A DNA stretch of 64,000 bases from Micromonospora sp. M71_S20 (GTDB lineage: Bacteria; Actinomycetota; Actinomycetes; Mycobacteriales; Micromonosporaceae). Positions 34,701 through 64,000 of this stretch are shown in pieces. The DNA lies in contig NZ_RCCV01000004.1 of NCBI RefSeq assembly GCF_003664255.1, forward strand, positions 620,001 through 684,000, given 5' to 3'. The notes under the pieces were generated by a model. The model searched no databases, had not been told where the DNA came from, and saw nothing but the letters and a program-made list of their open reading frames with translations. Positions within the stretch are counted from its first letter, which is position 1. Each line of letters begins with the position of its first letter. The position numbers and the translations under genes are program-made.

Positions 34701-37700
34701 CGAGGGCGGGCTCGTCGCCGGGCGCCAGCAGCACGCAGAGCGGGTCGACCTGGCCCAGCACCTGACGCAGCAGCGCCGGCGGATAGGCCCGGTCGAGCGG
34801 CACGACCGTCAGGTTGAGCCGGGCCGCCGCCAGCAGCGCCACCACGTGCTCCACCGACGGCTCGAAGAACAGGGCGACGCGGTGCCGGTCGCCGGCCGAC
34901 ACCTGATGGAGCCGCGCCAGTTCGGCGGCGAGCGCCGAGGCGTACGCGTCGAGGTCGGCGTAGCTGAGTCGGCGGTCGCCGGCGACGAGCGCGGTCGCGG
35001 CCGGCTCCGCCCGTACCTGCCGGGCGAAGGCCTCGGCCACGGTGGGGAGGGCCACCCGGGTACGCCGGCCCCGGCCGGGCTCGGGCAGGCCGCTGCGGTA
35101 GGGCCGCACCAGCTCGGCCAGGGTGCTCGTGCCGGCGCCGGTCAACGCGTCGAGGCCGCGCCGGAACAGGTCGGCGGCCGCAGCCACGTCGGCGGCGTCG
35201 AAGTGGTCGTCGGCGTACTCCCAGAGGCAGTCGAAGCCGGACCCGTGCTCGACGACCGAGAGGGTGAGCGGGCACTTGGCCTCGGTCGGCGCCAGCCAGA
35301 CCGGGCGGGACGCGCAGCCGGGCAGCGCCAGCGTGGAGAAGTCGGTGTTGTCGAGGACGAAGAGGAAGTCGAACAGCGGCGCGTCGGCGCCGAAGTCGTG
35401 GTCGGCGACGGCGTGCGCGAGCGCCACGTCCTGGGCGTCGAGCACCGCGCGTACGGCGGTGGCCTGTCGCCGCAGTTGCGCCCGCAGCTCCTCCCGGGGT
35501 GCCAGCGCCAGGGGGAGCAGCACGGTGTTGGCGAACATGCCGACGCTGGCCTCGAAGTCGCCCACGGGCCGGTTCGCCACCGGGCTGGCGACGCGCGGAT
35601 GGGTGCGGCCGGTCACCCCGTACACGGCCCAGCCGAAGAGCGTCAGCAGCAGCGGGAAGCGGGTCAGTCCCAGCTCGGCGCCGAGCCGGTCGAGGGCGGC
35701 GCGGCCTTCCGCGTCGATCGTCGTGCGCAGCAGGTGGTCCCCGGTGCCGCCGCGCTGCCGGATCGGCCGCAGCGGCGCGGCGACCTCCGCCACGTCGGCG
35801 TAGTGGCCGCGCAGGGCGTCGCGCTGCGCCCGGTAGGCCGGCTGGGCGAACCAGTCGGCCTGCCACCGGGCGTAGTCCAGCGGGGTCGGGGCGGGCTCGT
35901 CCTCGTCCTCGGTCACCGTCGTGCCGGCCAGCGCCGCCGCGTACGCGGCTGACAGCCCACGGAACAGCACGTCGAGTGACCAGCCGTCGACCGCGATGTG
36001 GTGCAGGTGCAGCAGCAGCACCCCGCCGCCGTCGCGGGCCAGCCAGTACGCCCGCAGCATGCGCGGCTGCCCGAGGTCGAAGGGGGCGGCGAAGAGGGCG
36101 CGGGCGCGCTCGCGCCACCCGTCCGCGTCGCCGTCGTCGCCCCCGGTGGGCTCGCGCCACGGGTCGTAGGGCTCGCCCACCTCCTGGCGCAGGCCCTCCG
36201 GCGTGGCCCGGAAGGCGGTCCGCAGCGCCGGGTGTCGCGCCACCACCCGGCGCAGCGCCTGCCGCAGCGCGCCGACGTCGACCCGGCCGCGCAGCTCGAA
36301 GGCGAGCCCCACGTGGTAGGCGGTGGACGCCAGCGAGCGTTGCTGCAACAGCCAGAGCCGCTGCTGCTCCGAGGTGGCCGGCGCGGACCGGGCACCGGCC
36401 GGGGCAGCCGGCACCGGGTACGGCGAACCGGTCGCGGTGCGGGCCGCCGCGACCGCCGCGGCCAGCGCGGCGAGGTCGCCGCCCAGCACCACCGCCTGCG
36501 GCACCTCGGCGCCCCAGCGCCGCTGGATCTCGAAGCGCAGCCGCAGCGCCTTCAGCGAATCCCCGCCGCTGGCGATCCACCGGTCGTCCGGTCGCAGGTC
36601 GGCCACGCCCAGCACCGCGCCGGCCAGCCCGAGCACCGCCCGCTGCCACGCCGCGCCGGCCGCGTCGGCAGGTCCGCCGTCGCGCTCGTCGCGTGGGTGC
36701 GGGTCGTCGTGCCCTTCGCGTGTGTCGCGTGGGTGCGGGTCGTCGTGCCCTTCGCGCCAGGGCGGGTCGTCGCGCCGCAGCAGCGCGTCGGAGTCCACCT
36801 TGCCGTTCGCGGTCAGCGGCAGCGCCCCGACGCGGTGGACCCGGTGCGGGCGCAGATACGGCGGCAGGGCCGCGGCCAGGTGCCGGTCGAACTCCGCGAA
36901 CGACAGGTCGGCGGCCGTCACCAGGTACGCCAGCAGCTCGTTCGTCCCGTGCACCGGGTCCCGCCGGGTGCACACGTACGCCTGCCGGACCCCTGGGTGG
37001 GCGAGGATCTGCCGCTCCACCTCGCCGGGCTCGACCCGGAAGCCGCGGACCTTGACCTGCCGGTCGACCCGACCGACGTACTCGACGCGACCGGCGGCGT
37101 CGGCGCGCACGAGGTCGCCGGTGCGGTAGTGGCGGCCGGCGGAGCCGTCCAGCCAGGGCAGCCGGACGAAGCGCGCGGCGGTCTCCTCGGGCAGGTTGCG
37201 GTAGCCGGCCGCCAGCGCCGCGCCGCCGAGGTACAGCTCGGCGACCTCGCCCGGCGCGGCGAGGCGGTCGCCGTCGACCACCAGGTGTGCGTCGGTGCCC
37301 GGCAGCACCCGGCCGATCGGCACCACCTCCGCGTCGAAGTCGCGGGGGACCGGATGGCACAGGGCGAACGTGGTCGCCTCGGTGGGCCCGTAGACGTTGT
37401 GCAGCCGGGTGCGGCTGGCGGGGTTGTCGCGGTACCAGCGGCGGATCAGCCGCGCGTTGAGCTGCTCGCCGCCGACCAGCACCTGGCCGACGTCGGCGAA
37501 GCAGTGCGGCAGCTCGTCGACCACCGCGTTGAACAGCGCCACCGTGATGAAGAGCGTGTCGATCCGCTCCCGGCGCAGCGCGGCGTCGAGCAGGTGCGGC
37601 GTCGCCACCGTCTCGTCGTCGAGCACGACGCAGCAGCCGCCGGTCAGCAGCGGTACCCAGACCTCGAAGCTGATCGCGTCGAACGCCGGGTTGGCGAGGC

Positions 37701-38277
37701 TCGCGTAGCGGGCCGCCGGGGTCAGGGCGACGTAGCCGGGGTGGGCCAGCCGCAGGACGCCCGCGTCGCGCACCTCCACGCCCTTGGGACGGCCCGTGGT
37801 GCCCGAGGTGTAGAAGACGAACGCGACCGGCGCGGGCGCGACCTCCGGCGTCGGCTGCCCGTCCGCGTCGGGCGGGGCGTCCGCCGCGAGCAGCGCCGCC
37901 ACCGGCAGCGGCCGGACCCCGTCGGGAAGCCCGCCGGGCACGTCCGGGCCGTGGACCACCGCCACGGCGCCCGAGTCGCGCAGCATGTGCCCCCGGCGCG
38001 CGGGCGGGCTCTGCCGGTCCAGCGGCACCACGGTCGCGCCGAGCCGCAGAATGCCGAGCATGACGCAGACCAGCCGCCAGCCGCGCGGCAGCTGCACCGC
38101 GACGGCCTCACCCGGGCGGGTTCCGGCCCGGCGCAGGGACCGGGCGACGGCGGCGCTGGCGGCGTCCAGGTCCGCGTAGCTGAGGCGCCGGTCGCCGTCG
38201 ACCACCGCGACCGCGTCGGGGGTACGGCGGGCCTGGGCGAGCACGGCGTGGGCGAGACCGGGACCGGGGACCATCAC
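28774..38277 (-). CDS. Hybrid NRPS-PKS: A-PCP-C-A-PCP-KS-KR-ACP-TE, no AT
   Basis: A 3,167-residue megasynthase. By eye: A1 (1-510; pocket read as DAFFLGVTF, aliphatic, possibly Ile), PCP1 (GGDSLK near 571), C (HHIAVDG near 762), A2 (1080-1570; DVQFVAHVV, matching Pro codes), PCP2 (GAGSLD near 1614), KS (Cys in QAACASSLVAVH near 1874, His in EAHGTGTELGD and IGHLGAAAG), the usual post-KS linker, a KR with GGTGGIG near 2599 and catalytic Ser/Tyr/Asn (SSMSAQLGGVGQLDYAATN), ACP (GADSLLLLD near 2869) and TE (GWSFGAW near 3000). No acyltransferase lies between KS and KR, so malonyl loading must be in trans. The A-first start resembles an initiation module. GTG 38277 overlaps the preceding stop; ATG 38274 is an equally possible start. 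Confidence 0.93.
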   Translation of the reverse strand: MMVPGPGLAHAVLAQARRTPDAVAVVDGDRRLSYADLDAASAAVARSLRRAGTRPGEAVAVQLPRGWRLVCVMLGILRLGATVVPLDRQSPPARRGHMLRDSGAVAVVHGPDVPGGLPDGVRPLPVAALLAADAPPDADGQPTPEVAPAPVAFVFYTSGTTGRPKGVEVRDAGVLRLAHPGYVALTPAARYASLANPAFDAISFEVWVPLLTGGCCVVLDDETVATPHLLDAALRRERIDTLFITVALFNAVVDELPHCFADVGQVLVGGEQLNARLIRRWYRDNPASRTRLHNVYGPTEATTFALCHPVPRDFDAEVVPIGRVLPGTDAHLVVDGDRLAAPGEVAELYLGGAALAAGYRNLPEETAARFVRLPWLDGSAGRHYRTGDLVRADAAGRVEYVGRVDRQVKVRGFRVEPGEVERQILAHPGVRQAYVCTRRDPVHGTNELLAYLVTAADLSFAEFDRHLAAALPPYLRPHRVHRVGALPLTANGKVDSDALLRRDDPPWREGHDDPHPRDTREGHDDPHPRDERDGGPADAAGAAWQRAVLGLAGAVLGVADLRPDDRWIASGGDSLKALRLRFEIQRRWGAEVPQAVVLGGDLAALAAAVAAARTATGSPYPVPAAPAGARSAPATSEQQRLWLLQQRSLASTAYHVGLAFELRGRVDVGALRQALRRVVARHPALRTAFRATPEGLRQEVGEPYDPWREPTGGDDGDADGWRERARALFAAPFDLGQPRMLRAYWLARDGGGVLLLHLHHIAVDGWSLDVLFRGLSAAYAAALAGTTVTEDEDEPAPTPLDYARWQADWFAQPAYRAQRDALRGHYADVAEVAAPLRPIRQRGGTGDHLLRTTIDAEGRAALDRLGAELGLTRFPLLLTLFGWAVYGVTGRTHPRVASPVANRPVGDFEASVGMFANTVLLPLALAPREELRAQLRRQATAVRAVLDAQDVALAHAVADHDFGADAPLFDFLFVLDNTDFSTLALPGCASRPVWLAPTEAKCPLTLSVVEHGSGFDCLWEYADDHFDAADVAAAADLFRRGLDALTGAGTSTLAELVRPYRSGLPEPGRGRRTRVALPTVAEAFARQVRAEPAATALVAGDRRLSYADLDAYASALAAELARLHQVSAGDRHRVALFFEPSVEHVVALLAAARLNLTVVPLDRAYPPALLRQVLGQVDPLCVLLAPGDEPALDVIDESGHPRHPVVLSSSTRPVAPSYAGRPLYTLFTSGSTGTPKGVQVGDALLVNLLRWQSEAGGLAGAAATLQFSMLSFDVSFQEIFGTLCGGGTLHLPRPGWRQDMPALLAHLDAAGIERIFLPYVALQLLAEHGVRLGRYPSRLREVVTAGEQLICTDSIRRWFAGLPGARLFNHYGPTETHVVSSLCLDGDPATWPARPAIGRPVANTWLRVVDSADEVVPPDCPGQLLIGGELVAPCYLDDPALDRARFVELPGHGWFFRSGDQARFDRDGLLHYLGRDDQQVKVSGHRLELGQVEAALLTHPAVVNAVVVRDDPHLVACLESRADPPSPEELTAHLAGLLPAYVRVDRFRRLAELPRTASGKLDRRRALTAPGEELRPGAAAPAPVMSALEARLAGLFEEVVGTPIGPDRRFFDHGAGSLDLMRFHLRCAAEGLPLSIPDLFEHVTIRRLARFLTGQRATAGPATPDEPAEVASPAADTAARTTETASPATDPSPPATATARRAAGVAATGRDEAAQGPTDEPVAVVGMAVRLPGATDLAAFWAMVEAGDRGIEHFDAADGLVGARSQLAGVLGFDPGHFGISRQEARLMDPQQRHLLMSCVEALAHAGIADPAGRRVGLLASCGENTYFQTMLREADPARLPDSFQLALHHEKDFLATKVAYHLRLTGPAFTVQAACASSLVAVHVAAGLLRQGDSDVMLVGGVLVDPLLSAGYRYQPQHIFSPDGHCRPFSDDAGGTVGASGVGVVVLKPLRLARRDGDTVYAVITGSAVNNDGAEKVGYAAPSVAGQREVIRTALRRSGRAGGDLGYVEAHGTGTELGDPVEVAALRQAFDLAEPDRIALASVKSQIGHLGAAAGVVGLVRAVLAVHHGLIPPNVDFRRLNPRLGPDPAPFYVPTKARPWPVDRPRVAAVSSFGIGGTNAHLVCEAVEPVGAPVDQRRRAGRGTDSAAPPGAGVPVMLLASGSAAGLRADAARIADYLAARPEAYHRVLRHLQAGRTPGRWRAAAVCGDVAAAVAWLRTATAVEVTPVEATPVAVTGPAGTPPAADLVAAWLAGRPIRWPAGPAQPPWDFPPPAFALADHEFPRAPKAGPTPPPGSPLPTGAASTGAAPSVEVAPSVEVAPPAGAAPPAGAVPADQPWPARLPEAEWLHQPHWVRWRHAEVDPGARRPETLVVMAAEPPSPAALRAFAVSHTRVVAVTAADGFARLGPDSYQVDPGDPESLGRLLDALTGAASPAGPGRSGVDWLHALPLAVDGPVDADALAHSYRACVDTPAALLAAVAALPGRSRLRAWWLSHQAQPVDDDVRRPELGLLAGVCEVAPQEGDVESHWVDLPGPDPADWAPALAALLTEETPPPRRLALRGSYWWEQALLPVRPPAATATGPLPAGPAVYVVLGGTGGIGRSIAAWLLEQGDCRVILLARRGPLPVVLAPWADRVDLVEVDLAETGPDELLARLDDRTRRVDGVVHAAGIAAGGLIGRRDAAAMRRATAGRAHGALLVERLVAHHRPAFVVYCSSMSAQLGGVGQLDYAATNGLLDGFARHRATGAGTTLRISVGWDVWNEVGLARDALPTDARHRAHLAVGLSVNEGRRLFAQALRLRLPHLLVCTTALDRAREFYAPPAGPQVATPTVLPRSAADQVGDWLCDWLGTDRLDPAASLYDLGADSLLLLDLIDRVKEHFGVSLGLSQLSHRVSLAEVLGLLGEPVHAAEAAEPAVAVEVWQAGRGRAVLCLVHPVGGDVQAYRSLVSALDPELTVCVIADPALVRPGQPAWSLAERAARYHAALRDRFPRDEWRWRLAGWSFGAWVALGMAAEAEAAGQPADELYLLDPPPPDAAPAFRAYDEERLAALFAHELGAATGANTAATAYADALARCCRANLASMAQHTLPRLAGTPGRLWLAGRPTAGLPALGPPQEQARKWRTHLTGLAWHLVDTSHYGIVGAPHVAAVAEAINEAEPATDPRAAR
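36688..36756 (-). repeat. 36-nt tandem repeat in the A1-PCP1 linker
   Basis: A 33-nt unit at 36688-36720 is repeated exactly at 36724-36756 (period 36). It encodes two copies of REGHDDPHPRD between the first adenylation and carrier domains of the hybrid synthase. In frame, so it only lengthens a charged linker. Confidence 0.85.
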
Positions 38278-41200
38278 GCCTCCCGTACGGCCGGCGTCGT
38301 CGGACGGGCGTCGGAGATCCGGTCCATCTCGGCGCGCAGCAGCGCGGCGACCCGCAGCACCACCGCGCTCTCCAAGATGTCCCAGTGGTCGCAGTGCACC
38401 TGATCCAGCAGGAAGTCGGCGTCGCCGCGTCGCCGCCAGAAGGCGCGCACCTCGCGCAGGAAGGCCTCGTCCCGCCCGGCGGTGGCCTGCAACAGCACCA
38501 GCCGGGCCGGCGACGCGGGGGTCGGGTAGTCGCGCATGGTCGACCGGTTGTGGTTGTAGACGCGGTGGTACTGGTCGATCTGCGCGTCGTCGATGCCCGG
38601 GTACATGCCGTTGAACTTGATGAGCTTGTCGCGGAACTCGGCCATGTCCACCGGCTCGATCGCGCCCCGGTGGGCCGGGTCGTCGGTGCCCAGGGTGTCC
38701 AGCAGCACCACGCTCAGCCCGGGATGCCCGGCGAGGGCCAGCCGGCGTCCCATCTCGTACGCGACCAGCCCGCCGTAGGAGAGCCCGGTGAGCACCACCG
38801 GCCCGTCCAGCAGGTGCGCGACCTGCCCCAGGTACGCCTCGGCCATCGCCTCGACCGTGGGCAGGAACTCCTCGCCCGGGTTCACCCCCGGGGACTGGAT
38901 GCCGTACACGCCGAGGGACTCCGGCAGCGCCTTGGCCAGCGACAGGTAGCAGAACGCGGTGCCGCCGGCCGGGTGCACGCAGATGACCCGTCCGGCGCCG
39001 TCGCCCGGCCGGAACTCGATCAGGTTGCTGGGTGGCCGGCCCGACGCGCCACGCCGCAGCCGGCCGCCGAGCGCCTCGATCGTCGGGTGCAGCATGATCT
39101 CGTGGACCGGTAGCGGTTCGCCGAACGCCTCGCCGATCGCGTGGGCCAGCTTGATCGCCGAGATCGAGGTGCCGCCCACGTCGAAGAACCGGTCGTTGAT
39201 GCCGATCTCCGGGTGCAGCAGCAGGCGCTTCCAGATCTGGTAGAGGGTCAGCTCGATCTGGTCGCGCGGGCTGGCCAGGTTGACCTGCCAGGGCGCGGCG
39301 GTACGGGCCAGCCGCAGCACCTCGTCCCGGTCGAGCTTGCCGTTGGTGGTCAGCGGCAGCCGCGGCAGCTCCACGAAGAGCGACGGGATCATGTAGCCGG
39401 GCAACCGCCGCGACAGCGCCTCACGCCACTCGCTGACCAGCAACGGCGGCGCCCCGCCCCGGGCGACCCCGGCGACCAGCCTCGGCTCGCCGGCGGCGTC
39501 GGAGTCGACGAGCACTGCCGCCTCGCGTACGTCCGGCCGGTCCCGCAGCGCGGCCTCGATCTCGCCCAGCTCGATGCGGAAGCCGCGGATCTTGACCTGG
39601 CCGTCGCGGCGGCCGAGGTACTCGATGTTCCCGTCGGGCAGGAGACGCGCCAGGTCGCCGGTGCGGTAGAGCCGTTCCCCCGCCACGAACGGGTCGGGGA
39701 CGAACCGCTCGGCGGTCGCCCCCGGCCGGCCCAGGTAGCCGCGGGCCACACCGGCGCCACCGATGTGGATCTCGCCGGTGACCCCGACCGGCACCGGCTC
39801 CAGCCGCTCGTCGAGCAGGTGGACTCGGGTGTTGGCCACCGGCCGGCCGATCGGGCACCGCCGGGCCGACGGCTGCGGGTCGAGGTAGGCGGTGCTGTAG
39901 ACGGTGGTCTCGGTCGGCCCGTACCCGTTGAGGACCCGCAGCCCGGGCAGGGCCTCCTGCATGCGGTGCAGGCCCTGTTCCGGCAGCGGTTCGACCCCGA
40001 CCAGCAGTTGGCGCAGCGACAACCCGGCCAGGCGGGCCGCCGGGTCCTCGTCGATCCACCGGACGAAGGCCGGCGGCAGGTAGGCCTGCACGACGCGGTG
40101 CTCGCGCAGCCAGCCCGTCAGCGCCACCGGGTCGCCGCGCAACTCCTCGGGTACGAGGTGCAGGGCCCCGCCGGTGGTCAGCGGCAGGAAGATCTCCTGC
40201 ACCGAGACGTCGAAGCCGACGCTCGACCAGAGCGCCGCCGCCTCCCCCTCGGCGGCGCCGAGCCGCGACACCCAGTTCTCGAGCAGGTTCACGACGCCGC
40301 CGTGGGCGACCGCGACGCCCTTGGGGCGGCCCGTCGAGCCCGACGTGTAGATCACGTAGGCCAGGTTGGCGGGGTGCACGACGACGCCGGGCGGGCCGTC
40401 GTAACGCCCCTCGGCCTCGACGGCGGCCAGGTCACCCTCGCCGAGCACCAGCGCCGGCGCGGCGTCGGCGACCATGCCGGCGAGCCGCTCCGGCGGCAGG
40501 GCCGGGTCCAGCGGCAGGTAGGCGGCCCCGGCCTTGAGCACGCCCAGGATGGCGACGATCAGCCCGGCCGAGCGCGGCGCGTGCAGGCCGACCACCTGGT
40601 CGGGGCGGACGCCCCGGGCGATCAGCGCGTGCCCCAGGCGGTTGGCCCGCCGCTCCAGCGTGGCGTAGTCGAGCCGCTCGTCGCCGTCGGCCACGGCGAG
40701 CCGGCCGGGGTGCCGCCGCGCCTGCGCCGCGATCCGCCGCACCACGTCCGCCGGCCCGGTGAGCGGTCGCGCGGTGCGGTTCCACTCGACCAGCAGGCGG
40801 TGCCGTTCGTCCGGGCCGAGCAGCCGCAGCGCGCCGACCTGGGCCGCCGGATCGGCCGCCACCTGACCGAGCAGGCGGACGAAGTGCCCGGCCAGCCGGG
40901 CGATCGTCGCGGCGTCGAACAGGTCGGTGTTGTACTCGAAGAGGACGTGCAGCTCGTCGGCGTGCTCCATCACCTCGACCGACAGGTCGAACTTGGCCGC
41001 GCCGGTGCTGCTCGACAGGGGCCGCAGCACCAGGCCGGGCAGCTCCAGCCGGCCGCGCGGGATGTTCTGGAGCACCAGCATCACCTGGAACAGCGGCGAG
41101 TAGCTGGTGTGCCGTTCCGGGTTGAGCGCGTCCACGAGCTGCTCGAACGGCAGGTCGGGATGGGCGTACGCGTCGAGCAGGTGCCGGCGGACGTCGGCCA

Positions 41201-42328
41201 GCAGCGCCGCGAAGGGCTGCTCCGGGTCCAGCCGGTTGCGGATCACCACCGTGTTCACGAAGTGGCCGATCAGGCCCTCCACGTCGCGGTGGTTGCGGTT
41301 GGCGAACGGGGTGCCGACGCAGACGTCGTCCTGCCCGCTGTAGCGCCACAGCAGCACCGACAGGGTGGCCATGAGCGTCATGAAGAGCGTCGCGTCGCCG
41401 GCCCGGCCGACGTCGCGCAGCCCGCGGAGCACCGCTGCGTCCACCGTCGTGGCGTGGGTCTCGCCCCGGTAGCGCTGCACCGCCGGCCGGGGCCGGTCGG
41501 TCGGCAGGGCCAGCAGCGCGGGCGCACCGGCCAGCGTCCGCGTCCAGTAGCCGAGCTGGCGCTCCAGCTCGCCGCCGCCGAGGTGCCGGCGCTGCCACAG
41601 TGTGTAGTCCGGGTACTGCACGGGCAGCTCGGCCAGCGCGGCGGCCTCGCCCCGCGCGTACGCGTCGTAGAGCGCGGCGACCTCGCCGATCAGGATGCCG
41701 ACGGACCAGCCGTCGGCCACCATGTGGTGCACGGTGAGCAGCCAGCGGTGCGCGTCGGGGGCCAGCCGGAGCAGGCGGCTGCGGACCAGCGGGCCGGCGG
41801 CCAGGTCGAACGGCGCCCGCGCCTCGGCCTCGGCGGCCTCGTCGGCGCGGCGGGACCGCTGCGGGTGGGGGAGCGCGGTGAGGTCCGTGACCGGCAGGGC
41901 GACCGGCCCGGCCGGCCGCACCACCTGGCAGGGCTCCTCGTCGACCAGGGCGAAGACGGTACGCAGCGCCTCGTGCCGGCGCACCACCTCGGTCAGGGCG
42001 CGGGCCAGCGCCGGCACGTCCAGGGCGCCCACGACGTCGAACGCCACCGGGTTGTTGTAGAAGGGGTTGCCGGGGGAGAGCTGGTCGAGGAACCAGAGCT
42101 GCCGTTGGGCGAACGCGACCGGCACCGGCGCCTCCGGTCGCGGCCGGCGGGGGATCGTGTCCGCGTCGGCGCCGGTCAGGATCGCGATCAGCTCTTCCTT
42201 GTGGAGCTTGAGGTCGGCCAGCAGGTCGGGCGTGAGGACCTCGCGGGAACCGGTGAGGCGCAGGCGGTCGCCGTCGACGCGCAGTCCCACCGCGTGCCGG
42301 TTGAGCGTGTCGAGCAGCTCGAAGGCGT

Positions 42329-42332
<4 letters not shown>
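38274..42332 (-). CDS. NRPS: TubC docking-C-A-PCP-TE
   Basis: A 1,352-residue single-module NRPS. It opens with a TubC-type N-terminal docking domain (residues 1-52; VNAFELLDTLNRHAVGLRVD, then LKLHKEELIAILTG), followed by C (about 70-490; HHMVADG), A (520-1030; pocket read as DVQYLGGVY, no confident substrate), PCP (GGTSISAIKLA near 1075) and a type I thioesterase (GLSYGG near 1200). The docking domain fixes it as a downstream partner of another subunit, most likely the four-module NRPS encoded just before it. GTG 42332 overlaps that gene's stop (GTGA). The TE should release a chain as acid, ester or macrocycle. Confidence 0.93.
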
Positions 42333-55927
<13,595 letters not shown>

Positions 55928-56056
55928 GTGTGCCCCCTCGATTCCCCGCCGGCCCGCCGCGCCACCTGACTGCGCCACCTGACATCGGCCGAAGTGGATC
56001 CACAGTAGACGACTCGACAAGCCGAGACCAGGGACCGACGGACCGGTCCGGAGACC

Positions 56057-56728
56057 TCAATCCGACACGCGGCTCAGACTTTCGGCCAGCGCGTCGGCGA
56101 GCCGTCCGTACGCCGCCCGCAGCACGTACGGCGCACCCGCCGCGCCGGCCCGGTTCGCCGCCGCCAGGGCGTACGCGCGCACCAGGGCGGCCGGGTACGT
56201 CTCGGCGTACGCCGCCGCGTCGGCCCGCGCCAGGGCGCCCGCCAGCGCGTCGGCGTTCGCGAGGGCGTTGGCGTCGGCGAACGCCTCGGCGTTGGCCCCG
56301 GTGCTGAGGTCGGCGTAGTGCGCGGCGAACTCGACCACCTCGTCGGGACCGTAGCCGTTGGCGCTCGCGTAGACCTCGGCGTTGGCGTACGCGACCGCCC
56401 GGGCCTCGGCGTACGGGTAGGCGGCCCGGTACAGCTCACGCAGGGCGGGCCCGAGCGCGCCGCGCCACTCGTCGGCCCCGACCCGGTCGCCGGCCAGCGC
56501 CCGCCGGTGCAGGTCACCCACCAGCCGCCCGGCGTCCCCGCCGGGCGTCGAGGCGAGCACGCGCGCGTGCCAGTCGTGCACGACCGGGAACGGCACCCGG
56601 CCGGCGAGCCGGTCGAGTTCAACGTCGACCCGCCGACGCCAGGCCGGCTTCGCGGCCGGGTCGTGGCCCTCGGCGAGCGCGGCGAGCACCGCCGCCAGCC
56701 AGGCCGGCGGCTGCGGCGGACCGCTCAC
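56057..56728 (-). CDS. Ala-rich protein of unknown function within the NRPS operon
   Basis: A 223-residue protein starting at GTG 56728, which overlaps the stop of the preceding NRPS gene (56725-56727). The first 100 residues form an ordinary helical domain (PAWLAAVLAALAEGHDPAAK, VVHDWHARVLASTPGGDAGR). The second half is a run of AxA-type repeats with aromatic and Asn residues (ARAVAYANAEVYASANGYGP, NAEAFADANALANADALAGA), predicting a long regular helical array. It is reminiscent of the SpcZ-like proteins found in some actinomycete metabolite clusters, but I cannot confirm that. Its coupling to the NRPS genes suggests a structural or accessory role rather than catalysis. Confidence 0.65.
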   Translation of the reverse strand: MSGPPQPPAWLAAVLAALAEGHDPAAKPAWRRRVDVELDRLAGRVPFPVVHDWHARVLASTPGGDAGRLVGDLHRRALAGDRVGADEWRGALGPALRELYRAAYPYAEARAVAYANAEVYASANGYGPDEVVEFAAHYADLSTGANAEAFADANALANADALAGALARADAAAYAETYPAALVRAYALAAANRAGAAGAPYVLRAAYGRLADALAESLSRVSD

Positions 56729-59700
56729 CCGTCCCACCTCGACGGCCCGTCCATGCCGGCGAGGAGGTCGTCGACGTCGTCGTCGGTCAACGTGTCGAGG
56801 TATCCCGCGCCGTCGGGCCGAGCCGGAGCGCCGGCCCCCGCCGCTGCGGCGCCCGCGGGTGTCGCGTCGGACCCCGCGCGGGTGCCCGCCCCGGCGGCGG
56901 TGACCGCGGCGGCCAGCCCGGCCACGGTCGGGTCGTCGAAAAGCGTCCGGACCGGAAGGTCGACCCCGTACGTCGTCCAGACCCGGGCCATCAGCTGGGT
57001 GGCCTTGACGGAGTGCCCGCCCAGGACGAAGAAGTTGTCGGCGACCCCGACCGGGCCGGGCAGGCCCAGCAGGTCGGCCACCAACCCCGCCAGCTCCCGC
57101 TCCAACGGGGTACGCGGGGCCACCGGCGCCTCGCCCGAGCCGGAACCCCTGCCGGGCGGTGGCAGGGCGCGCAGGTCCAGCTTGCCGCGCGAGGTCCGGG
57201 GCACCTCGGGCAGCGCCACGAAGACCGCCGGCACCATGTGCGCGGGCAGGAACCGGCGCGCGTGCTCGGCCAGCCCCGCCGGCGGATCGGTCCCGGGCGG
57301 GTCGGTGACCACGTACCCCACCAGCCGCACGCCGTCGTGCTCCACGTCGGACGCGGTCGTCACGACCGCGTCGCGGACCTGCGGGTGGCCGCGCAGCACC
57401 GCCTCGACCTCCGCCGTCTCGACCCGGAACCCCCGCACCTTCACCTGCCGGTCGGCCCGCCCCAGCGGCTCGATCCGCCCGCTCGGCAGCCAGCGCCCCA
57501 GGTCGCCGCTGCGGTAGAGCCGTCCGCCGGGAGTGAACGGGTCGGGCACGAACCGCTCGGCGGTCCAGCCGGGCGCGCCGGCGTAGCCCCGGCCGACCCC
57601 CGCGCCGCCGATGCAGACCTCGCCGACGACACCCGGCGGCACCGGCCGCAGCCACCGGTCCAGCACGTAGACCCGGCTGCCGGCGAGGGCCGGGCCCAGG
57701 TCCGGCGGCGCCGACCCCGGCGCGACCTCGGCCCCGGTGGAGTAGACGGTCGTCTCGGTCGGGCCGTAGAGGTTCCACAGGCGCGTGCCCGGCTCGGCCA
57801 GGGCGTCGGCGAGGGCCCGGGGCAGCGCCTCCCCGCCGCTGAGGCGCAGCCGCACCCCCGCCGGCACCCCGCCGGCCGCGACCAGCATCCGCCAGGTCGT
57901 CGGCGTCGCCTGGAGCATCGTGGCCCCGGCCGTGGTGAGCAGCCGGCGCAGCCGGTTGCCGTCGATCACGTCGTCGTCGCCGGCGACCACCACCGGCGCC
58001 CCGCACAGCAGCGGCAGGAGCAGGTCGAGCAGGGCGATGTCGAACGCGAACGGGCTCACCGAGAGGACCCGGTCGGCCGGCCCCAGCGGGATCATCCCGC
58101 GGAACGCGTGCAGCAGGTGCGCCACCGCGCCCTGGGTGACGGTGACCGCCTTCGGCCGGCCGGTCGACCCCGAGGTGAACAGCACGTACGCCGCCGCCGA
58201 CGCCGGCACCGCGCACGGCGGCGGCACCGGTCGCGTCCCCGCGCCGGTCGGCTCCGGCCCGGCCAGGTCCAGCAGGGTCACCGACGCGGCCAGCTCGGCC
58301 AGCAGCGGCGCGGGGACGCCGCCGCTGTCCGTGACGACCACCCGCACCCCGGCGTCGGCGAGCATCCCGCGCAGCCGCCCCGGCGGGTGGGTCGGATCGA
58401 GCGGCAGGTACGCCGCCCCGACCCACCAGACGCCCAGCAGCGCCGGGAGCGGACGCGCTCCCCGGGGCAGGACGATGCCCACGGTCTCCTGGACCCGTAC
58501 GCCGAGCCCGCGCAGCCCCGTGGCGATCCGGCCCGCGAGCCCGCGCAGCGCGGCACCGGTCAGCGTCGCGTCGTCGCCGGCGATCACCACCCGGTCGCCG
58601 GCGTCGATCCCGGTCACGAGCGCCGCCGCGGTGCTGCCCGGCGGCGGGACCGACCCGGACCGGGCGGCCGGCCACACCCGGGTGACGAGGTCCGCCGTCG
58701 CGGGGGAGAGGACGTCCACGTCGCAGACGCGGGTCTGCGGGGCGGTCGCCAGCGCGGTCAGGATCGCGCCCAGGGCGTCGGCGAACCGGCCCGCGCTGTC
58801 CGGGGTGAAGAGGTCGGTGAGGTACCGCAGGCGCACCGTCAGCTCGTCGGGGCCGGCGACGGCGGCCAGCTCCAGCTCGAACTTGCCGGTGCCGGTGGGC
58901 ACCAGCTCCGGCCGCCAGCGCAGCTCCCCCCGCTCCAGCGGCGCCAGGGCCTCCTCGACCGTGCACATCACCTGCACCAGCGGCGCCCGCGACGGCTGCC
59001 GCTGCGGCCGGCACAGCTCGACCACCCGGGCGAACGGCAGATCCTGGTGGGCCTGGGCGCGCGCGGTGGCGGCGTGCAGCCGGTCGAGCAGTTCGGCGAG
59101 CGTCGGCTCGCCGTGCAGCGCCGCCCGGATCGCGACGGTGTTGGCGAACAGGCCCAGCATCGGCTCGGTCTCGATCCGGGTGCGCCCGGCCACGGGCACG
59201 CCGACGAGCACCTCGTCCGCGCCGCTGAGCCGGGACAGCAGGGCCGCGTACGCGGTCAGCAGCACGGTGAAGAGGGTGCTGCCCCGCGCCCCCGCCAGGC
59301 GGCGCAGCGCCCCGGCCAGCTCCCCGTCGACCGGCACCGCCACCTCGCCGGCGGCTGGCGACAGCCGGTCGGGGTACGGGTGATCGACCGGGAGCGGCAC
59401 CTCCGGCGGGGCACCGGCCAGCTCGGCCGGCCAGAAGCGTTCCGCCTCGGCGTGACCGCCCGCGTCGTCGTGCTCCCGCTCCCAGAGGGCGAAGTCCGCG
59501 TACTGCAGGGGCGGCTCGACCGAGACGGGCGGCCGGCCGGCGCGCAGCGCCTCGTAGTCGGCGGAGATCTCGTCGAAGAGCAGCCGGAACGACCAGCCGT
59601 CGACGATCGCGTGGTGCGCGACCAGCGCCAGGACGTGCCGCTGCGGGGCGAGCCGCAGCAGCGTGACCCGGGTCAGCGGGCCACGCTCCAGCGGCAGCGG

Positions 59701-60030
59701 GGTGCGGGCGTGCTCCCGCAGCGCGACCCGGGCCGCCGCCTCCCGGTCCGCCTCGGGCAGCTCGTCCAGGGCCACGACCTCGATGGCGCTCGCGCGGGCG
59801 GAGTCGTCGATCACCTGGATCGGCCGCCCGCCGTTGGCCCGGAAGGTGGTGCGCAGGATCTCGTGCCGCTCGACCGCCGCCGCCCAGGCCCCGTCGAGCG
59901 CGGCCGTGTCCAGCGGGCCGTCCAGCCACACCGCCCACCCGACGTGATAGGTCGGCTGGCCCGGATCGAGCTGGTCGAGCAGCCACATCCGCCGTTGCGC
60001 GGCCGACGCCGGGAACTCGAAGACGGCCAT
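56725..60030 (-). CDS. NRPS: C-A(Gly)-PCP
   Basis: A 1,101-residue single-module NRPS starting MAVFEFPASAAQRRMWLLDQ. C spans about 1-430 (HHAIVDG near 137), A about 455-940 with pocket read as DILQLGLVY, close to established Gly codes, and PCP about 975-1045 (LGGHSVKATQL). The tail ends with the acidic helix motif YLDTLTDDDVDDLLAGM, of the type used as a C-terminal docking helix. ATG 60030 lies one base after the stop of the upstream NRPS-LanB gene, so the two are tightly coupled. Its C domain would accept the residue from that upstream subunit and join it to glycine. Confidence 0.92.
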   Translation of the reverse strand: MAVFEFPASAAQRRMWLLDQLDPGQPTYHVGWAVWLDGPLDTAALDGAWAAAVERHEILRTTFRANGGRPIQVIDDSARASAIEVVALDELPEADREAAARVALREHARTPLPLERGPLTRVTLLRLAPQRHVLALVAHHAIVDGWSFRLLFDEISADYEALRAGRPPVSVEPPLQYADFALWEREHDDAGGHAEAERFWPAELAGAPPEVPLPVDHPYPDRLSPAAGEVAVPVDGELAGALRRLAGARGSTLFTVLLTAYAALLSRLSGADEVLVGVPVAGRTRIETEPMLGLFANTVAIRAALHGEPTLAELLDRLHAATARAQAHQDLPFARVVELCRPQRQPSRAPLVQVMCTVEEALAPLERGELRWRPELVPTGTGKFELELAAVAGPDELTVRLRYLTDLFTPDSAGRFADALGAILTALATAPQTRVCDVDVLSPATADLVTRVWPAARSGSVPPPGSTAAALVTGIDAGDRVVIAGDDATLTGAALRGLAGRIATGLRGLGVRVQETVGIVLPRGARPLPALLGVWWVGAAYLPLDPTHPPGRLRGMLADAGVRVVVTDSGGVPAPLLAELAASVTLLDLAGPEPTGAGTRPVPPPCAVPASAAAYVLFTSGSTGRPKAVTVTQGAVAHLLHAFRGMIPLGPADRVLSVSPFAFDIALLDLLLPLLCGAPVVVAGDDDVIDGNRLRRLLTTAGATMLQATPTTWRMLVAAGGVPAGVRLRLSGGEALPRALADALAEPGTRLWNLYGPTETTVYSTGAEVAPGSAPPDLGPALAGSRVYVLDRWLRPVPPGVVGEVCIGGAGVGRGYAGAPGWTAERFVPDPFTPGGRLYRSGDLGRWLPSGRIEPLGRADRQVKVRGFRVETAEVEAVLRGHPQVRDAVVTTASDVEHDGVRLVGYVVTDPPGTDPPAGLAEHARRFLPAHMVPAVFVALPEVPRTSRGKLDLRALPPPGRGSGSGEAPVAPRTPLERELAGLVADLLGLPGPVGVADNFFVLGGHSVKATQLMARVWTTYGVDLPVRTLFDDPTVAGLAAAVTAAGAGTRAGSDATPAGAAAAGAGAPARPDGAGYLDTLTDDDVDDLLAGMDGPSRWDG

Positions 60031-60031
60031 C

Positions 60032-63000
60032 TCAACGCACCTGCCCGTCGACCGCGACGACCCGCAGCTCGGCGGTGTACCGGCCGTCGGGACCGGTCAG
60101 CCAGAGCTGGTCCGGCGCCGGCAGCATCTCCACCACTGCCACCGTGGCGTCGTCGCCGGCGTGCCGGCGGGCCCGGCGGACCGACCGGGACACCAGGTCG
60201 ACCGAGGCGAGGCTGGTCAGGTCGGCGTGGACCGGTTTGCGCTCGCCCGCGCAGCGCAGGAACACGTGACGCGGCAGGCCGTGGGCGCCCGCCCAGGCCC
60301 GCGCCTGCCGGAACCGCAGCGCCTCGTCGCGGGTGTCGGCGAAGGCGAGGTCGGCGGCGGCGAACGTCCACGCCTCGCGGCTGACCACGAGGGAGTCGAT
60401 GGTGATCCGGGGCTGGTGCGCCGCCGGGGGCAGGACGCGGAAGAGCTGGGACAGCCCGGCGCCGACCACGTCGCCGAGGACGTGCATCAGGTCCACGTCG
60501 AACCGCCCGTCGCGCGACCGTACCCGCAGCCCGCCGGGCGTGTCGACCAGGTCGCACTCGCCGACGCGCAGGCTGCGGCGCGGGTCGTGCCCGAACGAGT
60601 CGTGCGCGAACACCAACCGGATGTCGTCGGGTCCGGTCAGCGCGTTGCTCTGCCTGGTCGGCACGCCGCCCTCCTGGCCGGTCTCGGCGGGATAGACCGC
60701 CGCGGTGCCCACGTCCCGGGCCAGCGCGGCGCGCAGCGCGTCCACCTCCGGGTGGTAGGCGACCCAGGTGGCGTACCGCAGGGTGTTGACGCCCGGGTGC
60801 AGCTCGCCCAGGACCCACTCGTCGCCGGCCCGCATCAGGTCCGGGCTGTGCTGCCGCGCGGTCGGCCAGCCGGGCCGCCCCGGCGGGAAGGCGGCGGCCA
60901 CCGCCGGAGCCAGCTCCGCCGCCGTGAGCCGGACGCGTCGCCCGCCCGCCGGCAGCGGCAGCACGTCGGCCCAGCGCCGGTGCAGCGCGGCGGTCAGCAG
61001 GGCGGTCAGCCGTTGCGGCGGGTGGAACAGCGCCTCGCCGGCCAGCAGCCAGAAGTCGGCCAGCGGGACCACGTCGGTGCCCAGCTCGGCGGCCCGGCGC
61101 CGGTGGATGTCCGCGCAGAGGCGCCGGTATAGCGTCGCGCCGGCGGCGGTGAACCAGCGCGCGCTCTCCAGCACCAGGCCGAGCGCGTCGCGGATCCCGT
61201 CCAGGCCCGCCTCGCCGACGCCGACCGTGCCGGCGCGCAGGCACTCCTCGTAGACGGGGGTGCGGCCGGCGTACATCGTGCCGGCGCGCCGGGTGGCCGG
61301 GACGCCGGCCAGCCGGGTGAAGGTGGCCTCCAGGTCGGCCATCGCGCCGGTCAGCCGCTCCGGGTCGCCGGCCGCCGAGGCGAGCGCGTCCCGGGCGGCG
61401 CAGAGCTCGTCCAGGGCGGCTAGCGCCGGCCCGCGCACGGCCTCGTCGGTGACCCGGGCCAGCCGGGCCCGCATGGTCCGCTCCGGCCGGGTGTCGTGCG
61501 GCGCCACCTCCGGCCGCCACGCGATCCGGTGGGCCCCGGCCAACGTCTCCAGCACCTCGTGCACCTCCCGCGTCGACCGCAGTCCCGAACCCGGCTCGGC
61601 CAGCACGGCCCCGGCGACCTCGTCGGCGTCGCGGACCCCGTCGCAGGCGCGCAGCACCGCCGCCTCGGCGTCGGTCAGCGCCACCGGCGGGGCGAGCGGC
61701 ACCCGCAGCGTCGTCCCGGCCAGCTCCAGGAAGGGCATGAGCCGGGGTACGAGCCACGGGCGCAGCCGTTCCGCGTACGGGGCCAGCACCGCGGCGACCG
61801 CCCACCCCTCCAGGTAGACCGTTCGCCCGGCGAGCAGCGCCGGCGGGTCGGCGGGGTCGACCCGCACGCCGGTGCCCGGCTCGATCCGCGCCCAGCCGAC
61901 CGGCCCGAAGAAGCCGATGGTGTCGTTCTTCGCGCAGTAGCGCTGGAGGTAGCTGGTGACCAGCGCCTCGTGCTGGCGGTGCTTGGTGTTGCGGGTCGGG
62001 TTGCCGGGGCCCCGGCGCAGCAGCGCGTCGACGCCGGTGCGCAGCGCGTGCGGGTTCTGCCAGGCCACCGCCTCGCGGAAGCGGGGGTGGGCCGCCACCG
62101 CGTGCAGCGCGACCGTGAGCCGGTCGACCGCCCCCGGGTAGGCGGCCGCGTACGCCGCCTCGGCGCCGGCGATGCCGGCCGGGTCGCCGTCGGCCCGGGC
62201 CGCCACCACGCGGTCCGCGGCGGCGGCGAGCGCCGCGTCGCCGAGCGGGGCGAGCAGGTCGACCGGGAGGCCCGCGCCCCGCAGGCAGACGGTCCGCCAC
62301 AGGGCCCATCCGTCGGTCAGCCGGGCCAGGTGCGCGGGCAGGTCCCGCTCGCTGCGGTGCGGCACCCGGTCGCGGCGGCGCAGCGCCGGCCCCGTCCCCA
62401 CCCGGCCGCCCGGCGCCGATCCGGTCGCCGCGTCGATCGCCGCCGCCGTCGCGGCCAGGGTCGGTGCCCGGTAGAACGGGCCCACGCCCAGTTCCACGCC
62501 GAACGCCTCGCGGATCCGGAACATCAGCCGGGTGACCGTCAGCGAGTTGCCGCCGAGGGTGAAGAAGCCGGTCTCCCGCCCGATGCTCGCGGGCGGGGGC
62601 CCGCCGGGCAGCAGCCGGGACCAGAGCCCGGCCAGCCGGTGTTCGGTCGGCGTGGCGGGCCCGGCGACGTCCGGATCCGGACTGGCGAGGCCCGGCGCCG
62701 GCAGCGCCGCCCGGTCGACCTTCCCGTACGCGGTCAGCGGCAACCGGTCGAGGACGGCGAACGCGGCCGGCACCAGGTGGGCCGGCAGCCGGGCGGCGAC
62801 GTGCTCACGCAGGCCCGCCGCGCTCGGGACCGCCGCGCCGGCCGGCGTGACGTAGCCGACCAGGTGCCGCTCCGGCCCGTCGCCCCGTACGCCCACCGCC
62901 GCCGCGGCGACCTGCGGGTGCGTCCTGAGTACCGCCTCCACCTCGCCCGGCTCGACCCGGAACCCCCGGATCTTCACCTGGTCGTCGCGGCGGCCGAGGA

Positions 63001-64000
63001 ACTCCAGCACCCCGTCCGCGCGCCAGCGGACGACGTCACCGGTCCGGTAGAGGCGCCCGCCGGGCACCAGCGGATCCGGCACGAACGCCCGGGCGGTCGC
63101 CGCCGGGTCGCCGAGGTAGCCGCGGGCCAGCCCGTCGCCGCCGGTGTACAGCTCGCCCGCGATCCCGACCGGCACCGGCCGGCCGCTTGCGTCGAGCACG
63201 TGGACGGTGCTCTGCGGCACGGGACGGCCGATCGGCACCCGGTCGCCCACCGGCCCGGCGCCGCTCATCAGGTGGCAACTGGTCAGCGTCGTGTTCTCCG
63301 TCGGCCCGTACGCGTTGACCAGCGGAAGCCCGCCGCGCGCGGCGAGCACGGCGCGGACCGCGCCCGGGTCGGCCACGTCGCCGCCGGTGAGCAGCTGCCG
63401 CACGCCCGCCAGCGCCGTGACGTCCTCCTCGGCGAGCTGCCGGAACAGCCCGGCGGTGAGGAAGGCGACGGTGACCCCGCCGGTACGCATCAACGCGGTC
63501 AGCCGGGTGAGGTCCACCGGGTCCGGCGGCGCGACCACCGCCGTGGCACCGGTCAGCAGGGCGCCCCAGATTTCCCAGGTGGACGCGTCGAACGCGGTCG
63601 GGGCGAACTGGAGCACCCGCTCGCCGGGGCCGAGGGTGGCGAAGTCCGGGCCGGTCACCAGCCGCACCACGCCCCGGTGGGTGATCCCGACCCGCTTGGG
63701 CGCCCCGGTCGAGCCGGAGGTGTGCAGGACGGCGGCGAGCTGCGACGGGTGGCTCCGCCCCGGCGGCGGGCCGGCCGGCGCCGCTTCCCCGGCGGACGCG
63801 TCCACGTCCAGCACCCGGACCGGGCCCAGATCGGGCAGGCCGGCGGCGGTCGCGGAGGTGGTCAGCAGCAGGCGGGTGCCACTGGCGGCGAGGAGACCCG
63901 CGATCCGGGCGGGTGGGGCGGCCGGGTCCACGGGGAGGTAGGCCCCGCCGGCCTTGAGCACGCCCAGCAGGGCCCGGATCAGCGGTTCGCCCCGGGGGAG
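60032..64000 (-). CDS. NRPS A-PCP fused to a LanB-like dehydratase domain, 5' end outside window
   Basis: The frame runs off the right edge inside the adenylation domain (PRGEPLIRALLGVLKAGGAY at the edge), so the start and any C domain are not visible. The A domain (to about 62740) has core HTSGSTGAPKRVG and pocket read as DAWFLGATL, hydrophobic, with no confident substrate. A PCP follows (LGGNSLTVTRLM near 62550). The last ~750 residues match the N-terminal glutamylation domain of lantibiotic dehydratases: the segment RQHEALVTSYLQRYCAKNDT followed by IGFFGPVGWARIE near 61930, SHLA-like basic region and the C-terminal PRHVFLRCAGERKPVHADL. A separate elimination domain is not seen. LanB enzymes use glutamyl-tRNA to activate Ser/Thr for dehydration, so a dehydro-amino acid on the NRPS is the obvious hypothesis. 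Confidence 0.88.
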   Translation of the reverse strand, partial: LPRGEPLIRALLGVLKAGGAYLPVDPAAPPARIAGLLAASGTRLLLTTSATAAGLPDLGPVRVLDVDASAGEAAPAGPPPGRSHPSQLAAVLHTSGSTGAPKRVGITHRGVVRLVTGPDFATLGPGERVLQFAPTAFDASTWEIWGALLTGATAVVAPPDPVDLTRLTALMRTGGVTVAFLTAGLFRQLAEEDVTALAGVRQLLTGGDVADPGAVRAVLAARGGLPLVNAYGPTENTTLTSCHLMSGAGPVGDRVPIGRPVPQSTVHVLDASGRPVPVGIAGELYTGGDGLARGYLGDPAATARAFVPDPLVPGGRLYRTGDVVRWRADGVLEFLGRRDDQVKIRGFRVEPGEVEAVLRTHPQVAAAAVGVRGDGPERHLVGYVTPAGAAVPSAAGLREHVAARLPAHLVPAAFAVLDRLPLTAYGKVDRAALPAPGLASPDPDVAGPATPTEHRLAGLWSRLLPGGPPPASIGRETGFFTLGGNSLTVTRLMFRIREAFGVELGVGPFYRAPTLAATAAAIDAATGSAPGGRVGTGPALRRRDRVPHRSERDLPAHLARLTDGWALWRTVCLRGAGLPVDLLAPLGDAALAAAADRVVAARADGDPAGIAGAEAAYAAAYPGAVDRLTVALHAVAAHPRFREAVAWQNPHALRTGVDALLRRGPGNPTRNTKHRQHEALVTSYLQRYCAKNDTIGFFGPVGWARIEPGTGVRVDPADPPALLAGRTVYLEGWAVAAVLAPYAERLRPWLVPRLMPFLELAGTTLRVPLAPPVALTDAEAAVLRACDGVRDADEVAGAVLAEPGSGLRSTREVHEVLETLAGAHRIAWRPEVAPHDTRPERTMRARLARVTDEAVRGPALAALDELCAARDALASAAGDPERLTGAMADLEATFTRLAGVPATRRAGTMYAGRTPVYEECLRAGTVGVGEAGLDGIRDALGLVLESARWFTAAGATLYRRLCADIHRRRAAELGTDVVPLADFWLLAGEALFHPPQRLTALLTAALHRRWADVLPLPAGGRRVRLTAAELAPAVAAAFPPGRPGWPTARQHSPDLMRAGDEWVLGELHPGVNTLRYATWVAYHPEVDALRAALARDVGTAAVYPAETGQEGGVPTRQSNALTGPDDIRLVFAHDSFGHDPRRSLRVGECDLVDTPGGLRVRSRDGRFDVDLMHVLGDVVGAGLSQLFRVLPPAAHQPRITIDSLVVSREAWTFAAADLAFADTRDEALRFRQARAWAGAHGLPRHVFLRCAGERKPVHADLTSLASVDLVSRSVRRARRHAGDDATVAVVEMLPAPDQLWLTGPDGRYTAELRVVAVDGQVR

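What the first reader, a model, noticed from the sequence alone, without database searches (positions are those of the whole stretch)
60032..62350. LanB-like lantibiotic dehydratase domain fused to an NRPS module
Seen: an A-PCP is followed in one reading frame by about 750 residues with the Lant_dehydr_N signature (RYCAKNDTIGFFGP). Known: this domain glutamylates Ser/Thr with Glu-tRNA in ribosomal peptides. On an assembly line it would tie NRPS chemistry to charged tRNA. I recall one report of such a domain in an NRPS making a small dehydrated tripeptide (albopeptide) but could not check it; the present architecture, with Gly, Thr and thiazole modules downstream, looks different. The elimination domain is missing and the pocket code of this A domain is not Ser/Thr, so the dehydrated residue may be loaded elsewhere, for example Thr by module 1 of the large NRPS.
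Basis: partly seen in the sequence, partly recalled or inferred. Interest (0 to 1): 0.85.

Follow-up and report, generated by a model that had tools for sequence, protein, structure and literature searches.

The report
tRNA-using ligase fused to NRPS module
A Micromonospora peptide-making assembly line carries, fused to one of its modules, an enzyme domain that looks built to take an amino acid from a charged tRNA and join it on by an ATP-driven amide bond, rather than the dehydration enzyme it is usually labelled as.

Summary
In detail: an 1825-aa NRPS protein, C-A-PCP-PF04738, ends at window 60032 (minus strand) and begins outside the window. The dehydration reading fails. No elimination domain lies in the cluster, and the domain has the ATP-grasp residues (D524, E536, H538, R783) that published work ties to PEARLs, ATP- and aminoacyl-tRNA-dependent amide ligases; six split LanB proteins, each beside an elimination-domain gene, lack them. 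All 216 homologues checked keep D/E/H/E/R. PEARLs in NRPS clusters are known (SnaE, 2024), with fusions to thiolation domains mentioned there, so this is a variant of a known kind. New here: of listed fused homologues, 20 of 21 with an A-T loading module have the ureido-type condensation motif EHHxxHDG; 0 of 95 without a loader, like the window's, do. These carry another C-domain clade ('C1'); 62 of 64 listed C1 relatives at 39% identity or more carry a PEARL, and some fuse C1 straight to it. The two front ends swap on the PEARL tree. Best reading: C1 starts the chain with a unit bearing a free carboxylate, and the PEARL extends that end with an amino acid from tRNA, probably on the carrier. 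The donor of C1 and the tRNA are unknown.

The parts
60035..62392 (-). PEARL-type (PF04738, Lant_dehydr_N) domain, C-terminus of the 1825-aa NRPS protein (P0001)
61901..61942 (-). RYCAKNDTIGFFGP motif (domain residues 157-170) with R157 and K161
   Evidence: R157 and K161 invariant in the 25-row alignment A1; R and K in 6 of 6 split LanB, R and R in 11 of 11 full LanB aligned
60839..60841 (-). D524, PEARL-specific ATP-grasp Asp (taken to correspond to TglB D542)
   Evidence: D in 216 of 216 homologues; F/Y in 6 of 6 split LanB
60062..60070 (-). E781-L-R783, ATP/acyl-phosphate site (taken to correspond to TglB E801/R803)
   Evidence: E and R in 216 of 216; E kept and R783 A/T/I in 6 of 6 split LanB
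62435..62638 (-). PCP (thiolation) domain before the PEARL domain, GGNSL
   Evidence: PF00550 39.4 bits, motif
62720..64000 (-). Adenylation domain (part inside the window), code DAWFLGATLK
   Evidence: PF00501/PF13193; code. The C domain ('C1', FHHAILDG) lies outside the window at G000:C4:684238-685494
56725..60030 (-). NRPS C-A-PCP, Gly-like code DILQLGLVYK, directly downstream
   Evidence: Pfam, code; a C-A(-T) follows the PEARL gene in 17 of 17 fused loci
42329..56020 (-). NRPS C-A(Thr-like)-T-C-A-T-C-A-T-C(Cy-like)-A(Cys-like)-T-Ox
   Evidence: Pfam 4x Condensation, 4x AMP-binding, 4x PP-binding, Nitroreductase, codes
38274..42488 (-). NRPS TubC docking-C-A-T-TE
   Evidence: Pfam
28774..38277 (-). 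Hybrid A-T-C-A-T-KS-KR-ACP-TE
   Evidence: Pfam, carrier motifs

Best explanation
The domain is a PEARL-type, ATP- and aminoacyl-tRNA-dependent amide ligase built into the chain-starting module of an NRPS. Inferred mechanism: the A domain loads a hydrophobic amino acid on the PCP; the divergent C domain C1 caps its amine with a unit that leaves a free carboxylate at the chain start, the role played by A-T-Curea in sister proteins; the PEARL domain phosphorylates that carboxylate with ATP and couples it to the amino group of an aminoacyl-tRNA, then the tRNA ester is hydrolysed. The chain thus gains one tRNA-derived residue at the end away from the NRPS direction, probably while on the PCP. Shown by computation: family, fold, residues, fusion, C1-PEARL coupling, front-end swap. 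Inferred: activity, substrate, timing, product.
For: ATP-grasp set D524/E536/H538/R783 present, and replaced in 6 of 6 split LanB proteins that keep the tRNA and adenine residues; each of those six has a PF14028 gene within about 310 bases (places). D/E/H/E/R in 216 of 216 homologues. R678/F717 align with TbtB R743/F783 (alignment; published numbers from PMC11117183; assumes a 3-residue tag). SnaE precedent for peptide bond formation on an NRPS product. Front ends: Curea motif in 20 of 21 loader-bearing proteins, 0 of 95 loader-less ones; same PEARL-module A code DALWLGGTF in 49 of 80 C-A-T-PEARL and 13 of 20 A-T-C-A-T-PEARL; 3 to 10 switches on the PEARL tree. C1-PEARL without A-T: 15 proteins, 14 with a long C domain, 13 of them C1-type. 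C1 relatives at 39% or more: 62 of 64 carry a PEARL. In three related clusters the last module has a terminal reductase, so no C-terminal carboxylate should be left.
Confidence: 0.6

Rival explanations
1. It is a LanB-type glutamylation half: it esterifies a PCP-bound Ser/Thr with Glu from Glu-tRNA, and another enzyme eliminates it to a dehydro residue.
For: PF04738 match; R44, Y154, R157, K161 and adenine clamp R678/F717 shared with split LanB; a Thr-like module downstream.
Against: The PEARL-specific ATP-grasp residues are kept, unlike 6 of 6 split LanB; no PF14028 in the protein or on its contig; no Ser/Thr code (by recall) in the PEARL modules of 80 + 20 fused proteins.
Confidence: 0.05
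2. tRNA-primed assembly line: the PEARL makes an acyl-aminoacyl-tRNA and C1 uses that tRNA ester directly as donor, so the chain starts from tRNA with no upstream carrier.
For: No loading A-T was found in the Saccharothrix and Actinophytocola regions read, 56 and 55 kb; C1 and PEARL are coupled and even directly fused.
Against: PEARLs are described to end with hydrolysis of the tRNA (PMC11962472 passages); I know of no C domain that uses tRNA (recall); the PEARL is equally conserved behind Curea, where a carrier-bound donor exists.
Confidence: 0.12
3. The PEARL forms the urea itself: it phosphorylates the carbamate of the PCP-bound amino acid (or bicarbonate) and the amine of aminoacyl-tRNA attacks, giving aa-CO-aa without a Curea domain.
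For: ATP-grasp residues kept; loader-less lines lack the Curea motif; ATP-grasp enzymes that activate bicarbonate are known (recalled).
Against: The PEARL behind Curea is 56-60% identical to the window's and the catalytic set does not differ between the classes, which argues for one shared reaction; it leaves C1 without a task.
Confidence: 0.1
4. [quoted passage not shown] fusion to the first module is incidental.
For: Classical PEARLs act on peptide C-termini; two TE domains in this cluster.
Against: Three related C1-A-T-PEARL clusters end in a reductase module, which should leave no C-terminal carboxylate; the PEARL stays tied to the C1 domain.
Confidence: 0.1

Closest known systems
SnaE (threopeptin, Stackebrandtia nassauensis), PEARL-like ligase of an NRPS-PKS cluster (PMC11212132)
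   Same: PF04738 family in an NRPS cluster; in Micromonospora wenchangensis (L009) a SnaA-like A-T-Curea-A-T is fused to the PEARL, and two more genus genomes have matches in frames of like length, 2467 and 2472 aa (architecture not read)
   Different: SnaE is stand-alone and works after a ureido-forming C domain; the window's PEARL is fused to a C-A-T module whose C domain lacks the Curea motif and which has no loading module of its own. SnaE's sequence was not compared here
PEARLs on carrier peptides (TglB, BhaBCTrp, AmmB)
   Same: ATP-grasp and tRNA-binding residues, by published numbers
   Different: fused to an NRPS carrier protein; a carrier-peptide gene was not sought; their sequences were not aligned here
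Split LanB glutamylase TbtB
   Different: published Tyr and Leu in TbtB, and F/Y and A/T/I in six split LanB aligned here, where the window has D524 and R783
Class I LanB dehydratases (NisB, MibB)
   Different: no elimination domain; of the sites compared with 11 full LanB only R44, Y154, R157 and K161 (as R) are kept throughout (a weaker alignment, probability 77%)

Membership tests
PEARL (peptide aminoacyl-tRNA ligase) | PF04738-type domain without PF14028 elimination domain | tested here: met
PEARL (peptide aminoacyl-tRNA ligase) | ATP-grasp residues TglB D542 and R803 (plus E564, E801), the first two absent from split LanB | tested here: met
   D524, R783, E536, E781 by profile alignment with 6 split LanB; 216 of 216 homologues; literature passages. 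TglB itself was not aligned
PEARL (peptide aminoacyl-tRNA ligase) | tRNA-binding residues (BhaBCTrp Y205, R208) and active-site R34 | tested here: met
   Y154, R157, K161 in 213 of 216 and R44 in 203 of 216, the rest gaps; pairing with BhaBCTrp numbers is inferred
PEARL (peptide aminoacyl-tRNA ligase) | ATP- and aminoacyl-tRNA-dependent amide bond formation | not testable with these tools
   needs assay
PEARL (peptide aminoacyl-tRNA ligase) | carrier peptide gene nearby (classical PEARLs) | not tested
   not searched
Class I LanB / split LanB dehydratase | glutamate elimination domain in the protein or cluster | tested here: not met
   no PF14028 in protein; genome's four matches on contig C1, window on C4; by contrast 6 of 6 split LanB controls have it next door
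Class I LanB / split LanB dehydratase | Tyr/Leu (or other) in place of the two PEARL residues | tested here: not met
   D524 and R783 present
SnaE-type NRPS PEARL with ureido chain reversal | C domain with EHHxxHDG in the line | tested here: not met
   no match in the five NRPS proteins of the cluster
SnaE-type NRPS PEARL with ureido chain reversal | PEARL-like protein in an NRPS/PKS cluster | tested here: met

The most novel reading that the evidence does not exclude
C1 plus PEARL is a new kind of NRPS starter: a carrier-free, tRNA-fed initiation unit in which C1 takes the acyl-aminoacyl group straight from tRNA made by the fused PEARL, replacing the A-T-Curea loader; the C1-PEARL didomains would be its minimal form.
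Probability: 0.12. Interest if true: 0.9.

Novelty: new variant of a known kind. Interest (0 to 1): 0.6.

Why it matters
It would couple thiotemplate peptide synthesis to charged tRNA inside one polypeptide. The fusion to a carrier domain bears on a question left open for SnaE, whether the tRNA-derived residue is added on the assembly line or after release. The C1 class predicts a set of peptides with a residue added backwards at the start, from genes whose database names still speak of lantibiotic dehydratases. The C1/Curea dichotomy gives a simple sequence rule for sorting such clusters.

Tried and rejected
Dehydratase reading: rejected on residues and on the missing elimination domain. Albopeptide as precedent: rejected. 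Curea in the window's NRPS proteins: sought, absent. FHHA[IL]LDG as a sufficient mark of PEARL partners: rejected, 26 of 56 lesser relatives have it without a fused PEARL. Subtype of C1: the nearest solved C domains are microcystin synthetase B and PvdL at about 149 bits, which does not fix a subtype; C1-specific residues are not used as evidence because the comparison set was not sorted by subtype. A PDB search with the single sequence found nothing at E up to 1; the profile found TbtB, and four weak unrelated rows. The C-domain tree is midpoint-rooted, and the window's fourth C domain of the large protein aligned poorly. Neighbourhoods of C1-PEARL didomain genes could not be read: among 148 class genomes searched with P0004 only the window's own genome and one stand-alone-sized frame matched. 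Absences in fold lists are not used as evidence.

Scripts with faults, superseded: one search picked wrong active-site motifs for some domains, the window's C1 among them (corrected); one search read minus-strand loci in the wrong orientation; mis-indexed the profile alignment. Choice of controls: of the proteins pulled out, L111 (incomplete) was left out of the split LanB set and L115 was moved into it after I had seen its C-terminal motif, so the R783 column is partly chosen for that protein; the D524, E536 and H538 columns were not looked at before. One search, run afterwards, shows PF14028 next to all six. L086 and L103-L106 were left out of the full LanB alignment, as were L092, L094 and L095.

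Full report
What is there. The reported frame is the 3' part of an intact 1825-aa ORF on the minus strand, G000:C4:680032-685509, window 60032 to beyond 64000. Its Pfam order is Condensation, AMP-binding, AMP-binding_C, PP-binding, Lant_dehydr_N PF04738 (65.9 bits for the window part, cut-off 28), with no PF14028. Directly upstream lies an 83-aa ORF (G000:C4:685531-685782) that I read as MbtH-like by eye, with homologues in the same position in two of the four other regions compared. Downstream come C-A-PCP; a four-module protein ending in Ox; TubC-C-A-T-TE; and A-T-C-A-T-KS-KR-ACP-TE. Codes read from an alignment: PEARL module DAWFLGATLK, next module DILQLGLVYK, then DFWNVGMVHK, DVADVGAVDK, DVQFVAQVVK, DLFNMSLIWK; naming them (Leu/Val-like, Gly, Thr, Cys) rests on recall. 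The nearest named relatives are Micromonospora (L004, Micromonospora sp. C31, 92%).

What is known. Yu and van der Donk (PMC11212132; [quoted passage not shown] They left open whether the addition happens on the assembly line. Their Curea motif is EHHxxHDG. Ten full-text searches listed no paper whose title or abstract start describes C-A-T-PEARL or C-PEARL proteins with a non-Curea C domain; besides that paper I saw only passages of five others, so this is weak evidence of absence.

What looks new. (1) Fusions are common: 17 of 77 loci fetched by similarity are fused, and in 17 of 17 a C-A(-T) gene follows. In the genus sample, 90 of 151 genomes have a match at E up to 0.001, distant ones included; matches at 83% or more are in 8 of 151, the window's own among them. 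(2) Two front ends. Of 224 listed proteins (best 120 of each of two searches, overlaps merged, the window's own included), 20 are A-T-C-A-T-PEARL and one T-C-A-T-PEARL: 20 of these 21 have the Curea motif (EHH[FY]VHDG or EHHFIHDG; the other AHHIIHDG). Of 80 C-A-T-PEARL and 15 C-PEARL, 0 of 95 have it anywhere. Most loader-less ones read FHHALLDG or FHHAILDG; three C-A-T-PEARL proteins have lost the first His of the pair. The rest of the 224 are PEARL alone (85), A-T-PEARL (15) and T-PEARL (8); some of these are fragments. (3) The A domain next to the PEARL has the same commonest code in both classes, DALWLGGTF in 49 of 80 and 13 of 20; the window's own DAWFLGATL is in 8 of 80. The FastTree PEARL tree needs 10 switches between front ends, 3 if only branches with support 95 or more are kept; shuffled labels need about 20. 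(4) C1 follows the PEARL. In 151 genus genomes, with 11 candidates scored per genome, 16 C domains score above 200 bits: 15 lie within about 2.5 kb of a PEARL (13 in the same frame, 2 beside a stand-alone PEARL) and the sixteenth is cut by a contig end; the next best hit has 158 bits. Of the 120 best listed from the protein database (7977 candidates scored), 62 of 64 at 39% identity or more also carry a PEARL and 0 of 56 below; 26 of those 56 nevertheless have FHHA[IL]LDG, so the clade, not the motif, is the mark. Many of these proteins are orthologues of one another, so the counts are not independent events.

How it may work. In three related clusters (Saccharothrix sp. ALI-22-I, Actinophytocola gossypii, Salinispora pacifica CNR114) the last module carries a terminal reductase: found by Pfam in Saccharothrix, by similarity (64% and 44.5%) in the others. 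Reductive release should leave no C-terminal carboxylate, so the ligase would act at the other end or on a side chain; the A codes of the PEARL module do not look like Asp/Glu (recall). In the Saccharothrix and Actinophytocola regions no loading A-T was found in the 56 and 55 kb read, although my home-made profiles and ORF filter may miss a lone carrier. The window's cluster does hold an A-T start in its hybrid protein, whose place in the line is unknown. The simplest model is that C1 does what A-T-Curea does in sister proteins, making a chain start with a free carboxylate but from a donor not held on a carrier, and that the PEARL then extends it with an aminoacyl-tRNA. Bolder: C1 takes its donor from the PEARL's tRNA product. 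Both are inference.

Limits. Protein counts come from capped 'best 120' lists, clustered at 90%, many from metagenomes and unnamed; neighbours of the C1-PEARL didomains could not be read; no characterised PEARL sequence was aligned directly, the residue mapping goes through split LanB proteins and published numbers.

Noticed in passing
G000:C1:1826456-1830895 and 2790656-2795687: Two LanB loci with PF04738 and PF14028 in the same genome.
   Followed up: partly
L147-L149 (M. wenchangensis, G176:C4:97100-123619): A-T-Curea(EHHFVHDG)-A-T-PEARL protein with an MbtH-like ORF, LysW-aminoadipate-kinase-like and argC-like genes, and a TE/acyl-CoA-dehydrogenase protein: looks like SnaA and SnaE fused, perhaps with a SnaO-like partner.
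   Followed up: partly
L141-L143 (Salinispora pacifica CNR114) and five other genus genomes (G125, G155, G156, G161, G167): Two PEARLs about 18 kb apart, one in a long fused frame and one in a frame of stand-alone size.
   Followed up: no
many genus genomes (e.g. G027:C20:96138-100720): Tandem pairs of PEARL-like genes, about 40% identical to the window domain.
   Followed up: no
P0248, P0259, P0260, P0261, P0263 and others: C-A-T-C-T proteins of about 2000-2100 aa whose first C domain has FHHA[IL]LDG but no PEARL: possibly another use of the same starter-like C domain.
   Followed up: no
L139:6086-6763: DUF6875 protein (unknown function) inside the Saccharothrix C1-PEARL cluster, with a 57% identical homologue in the Salinispora one.
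   Followed up: no
window 56060-56725 (-): 222-aa Ala-rich ORF between two NRPS genes, no Pfam or NCBIfam match; may or may not be a gene.
   Followed up: no
window 28774-38277 (-): Hybrid A-T-C-A-T-KS-KR-ACP-TE, no AT domain among its Pfam matches: a second TE in the same cluster.
   Followed up: no
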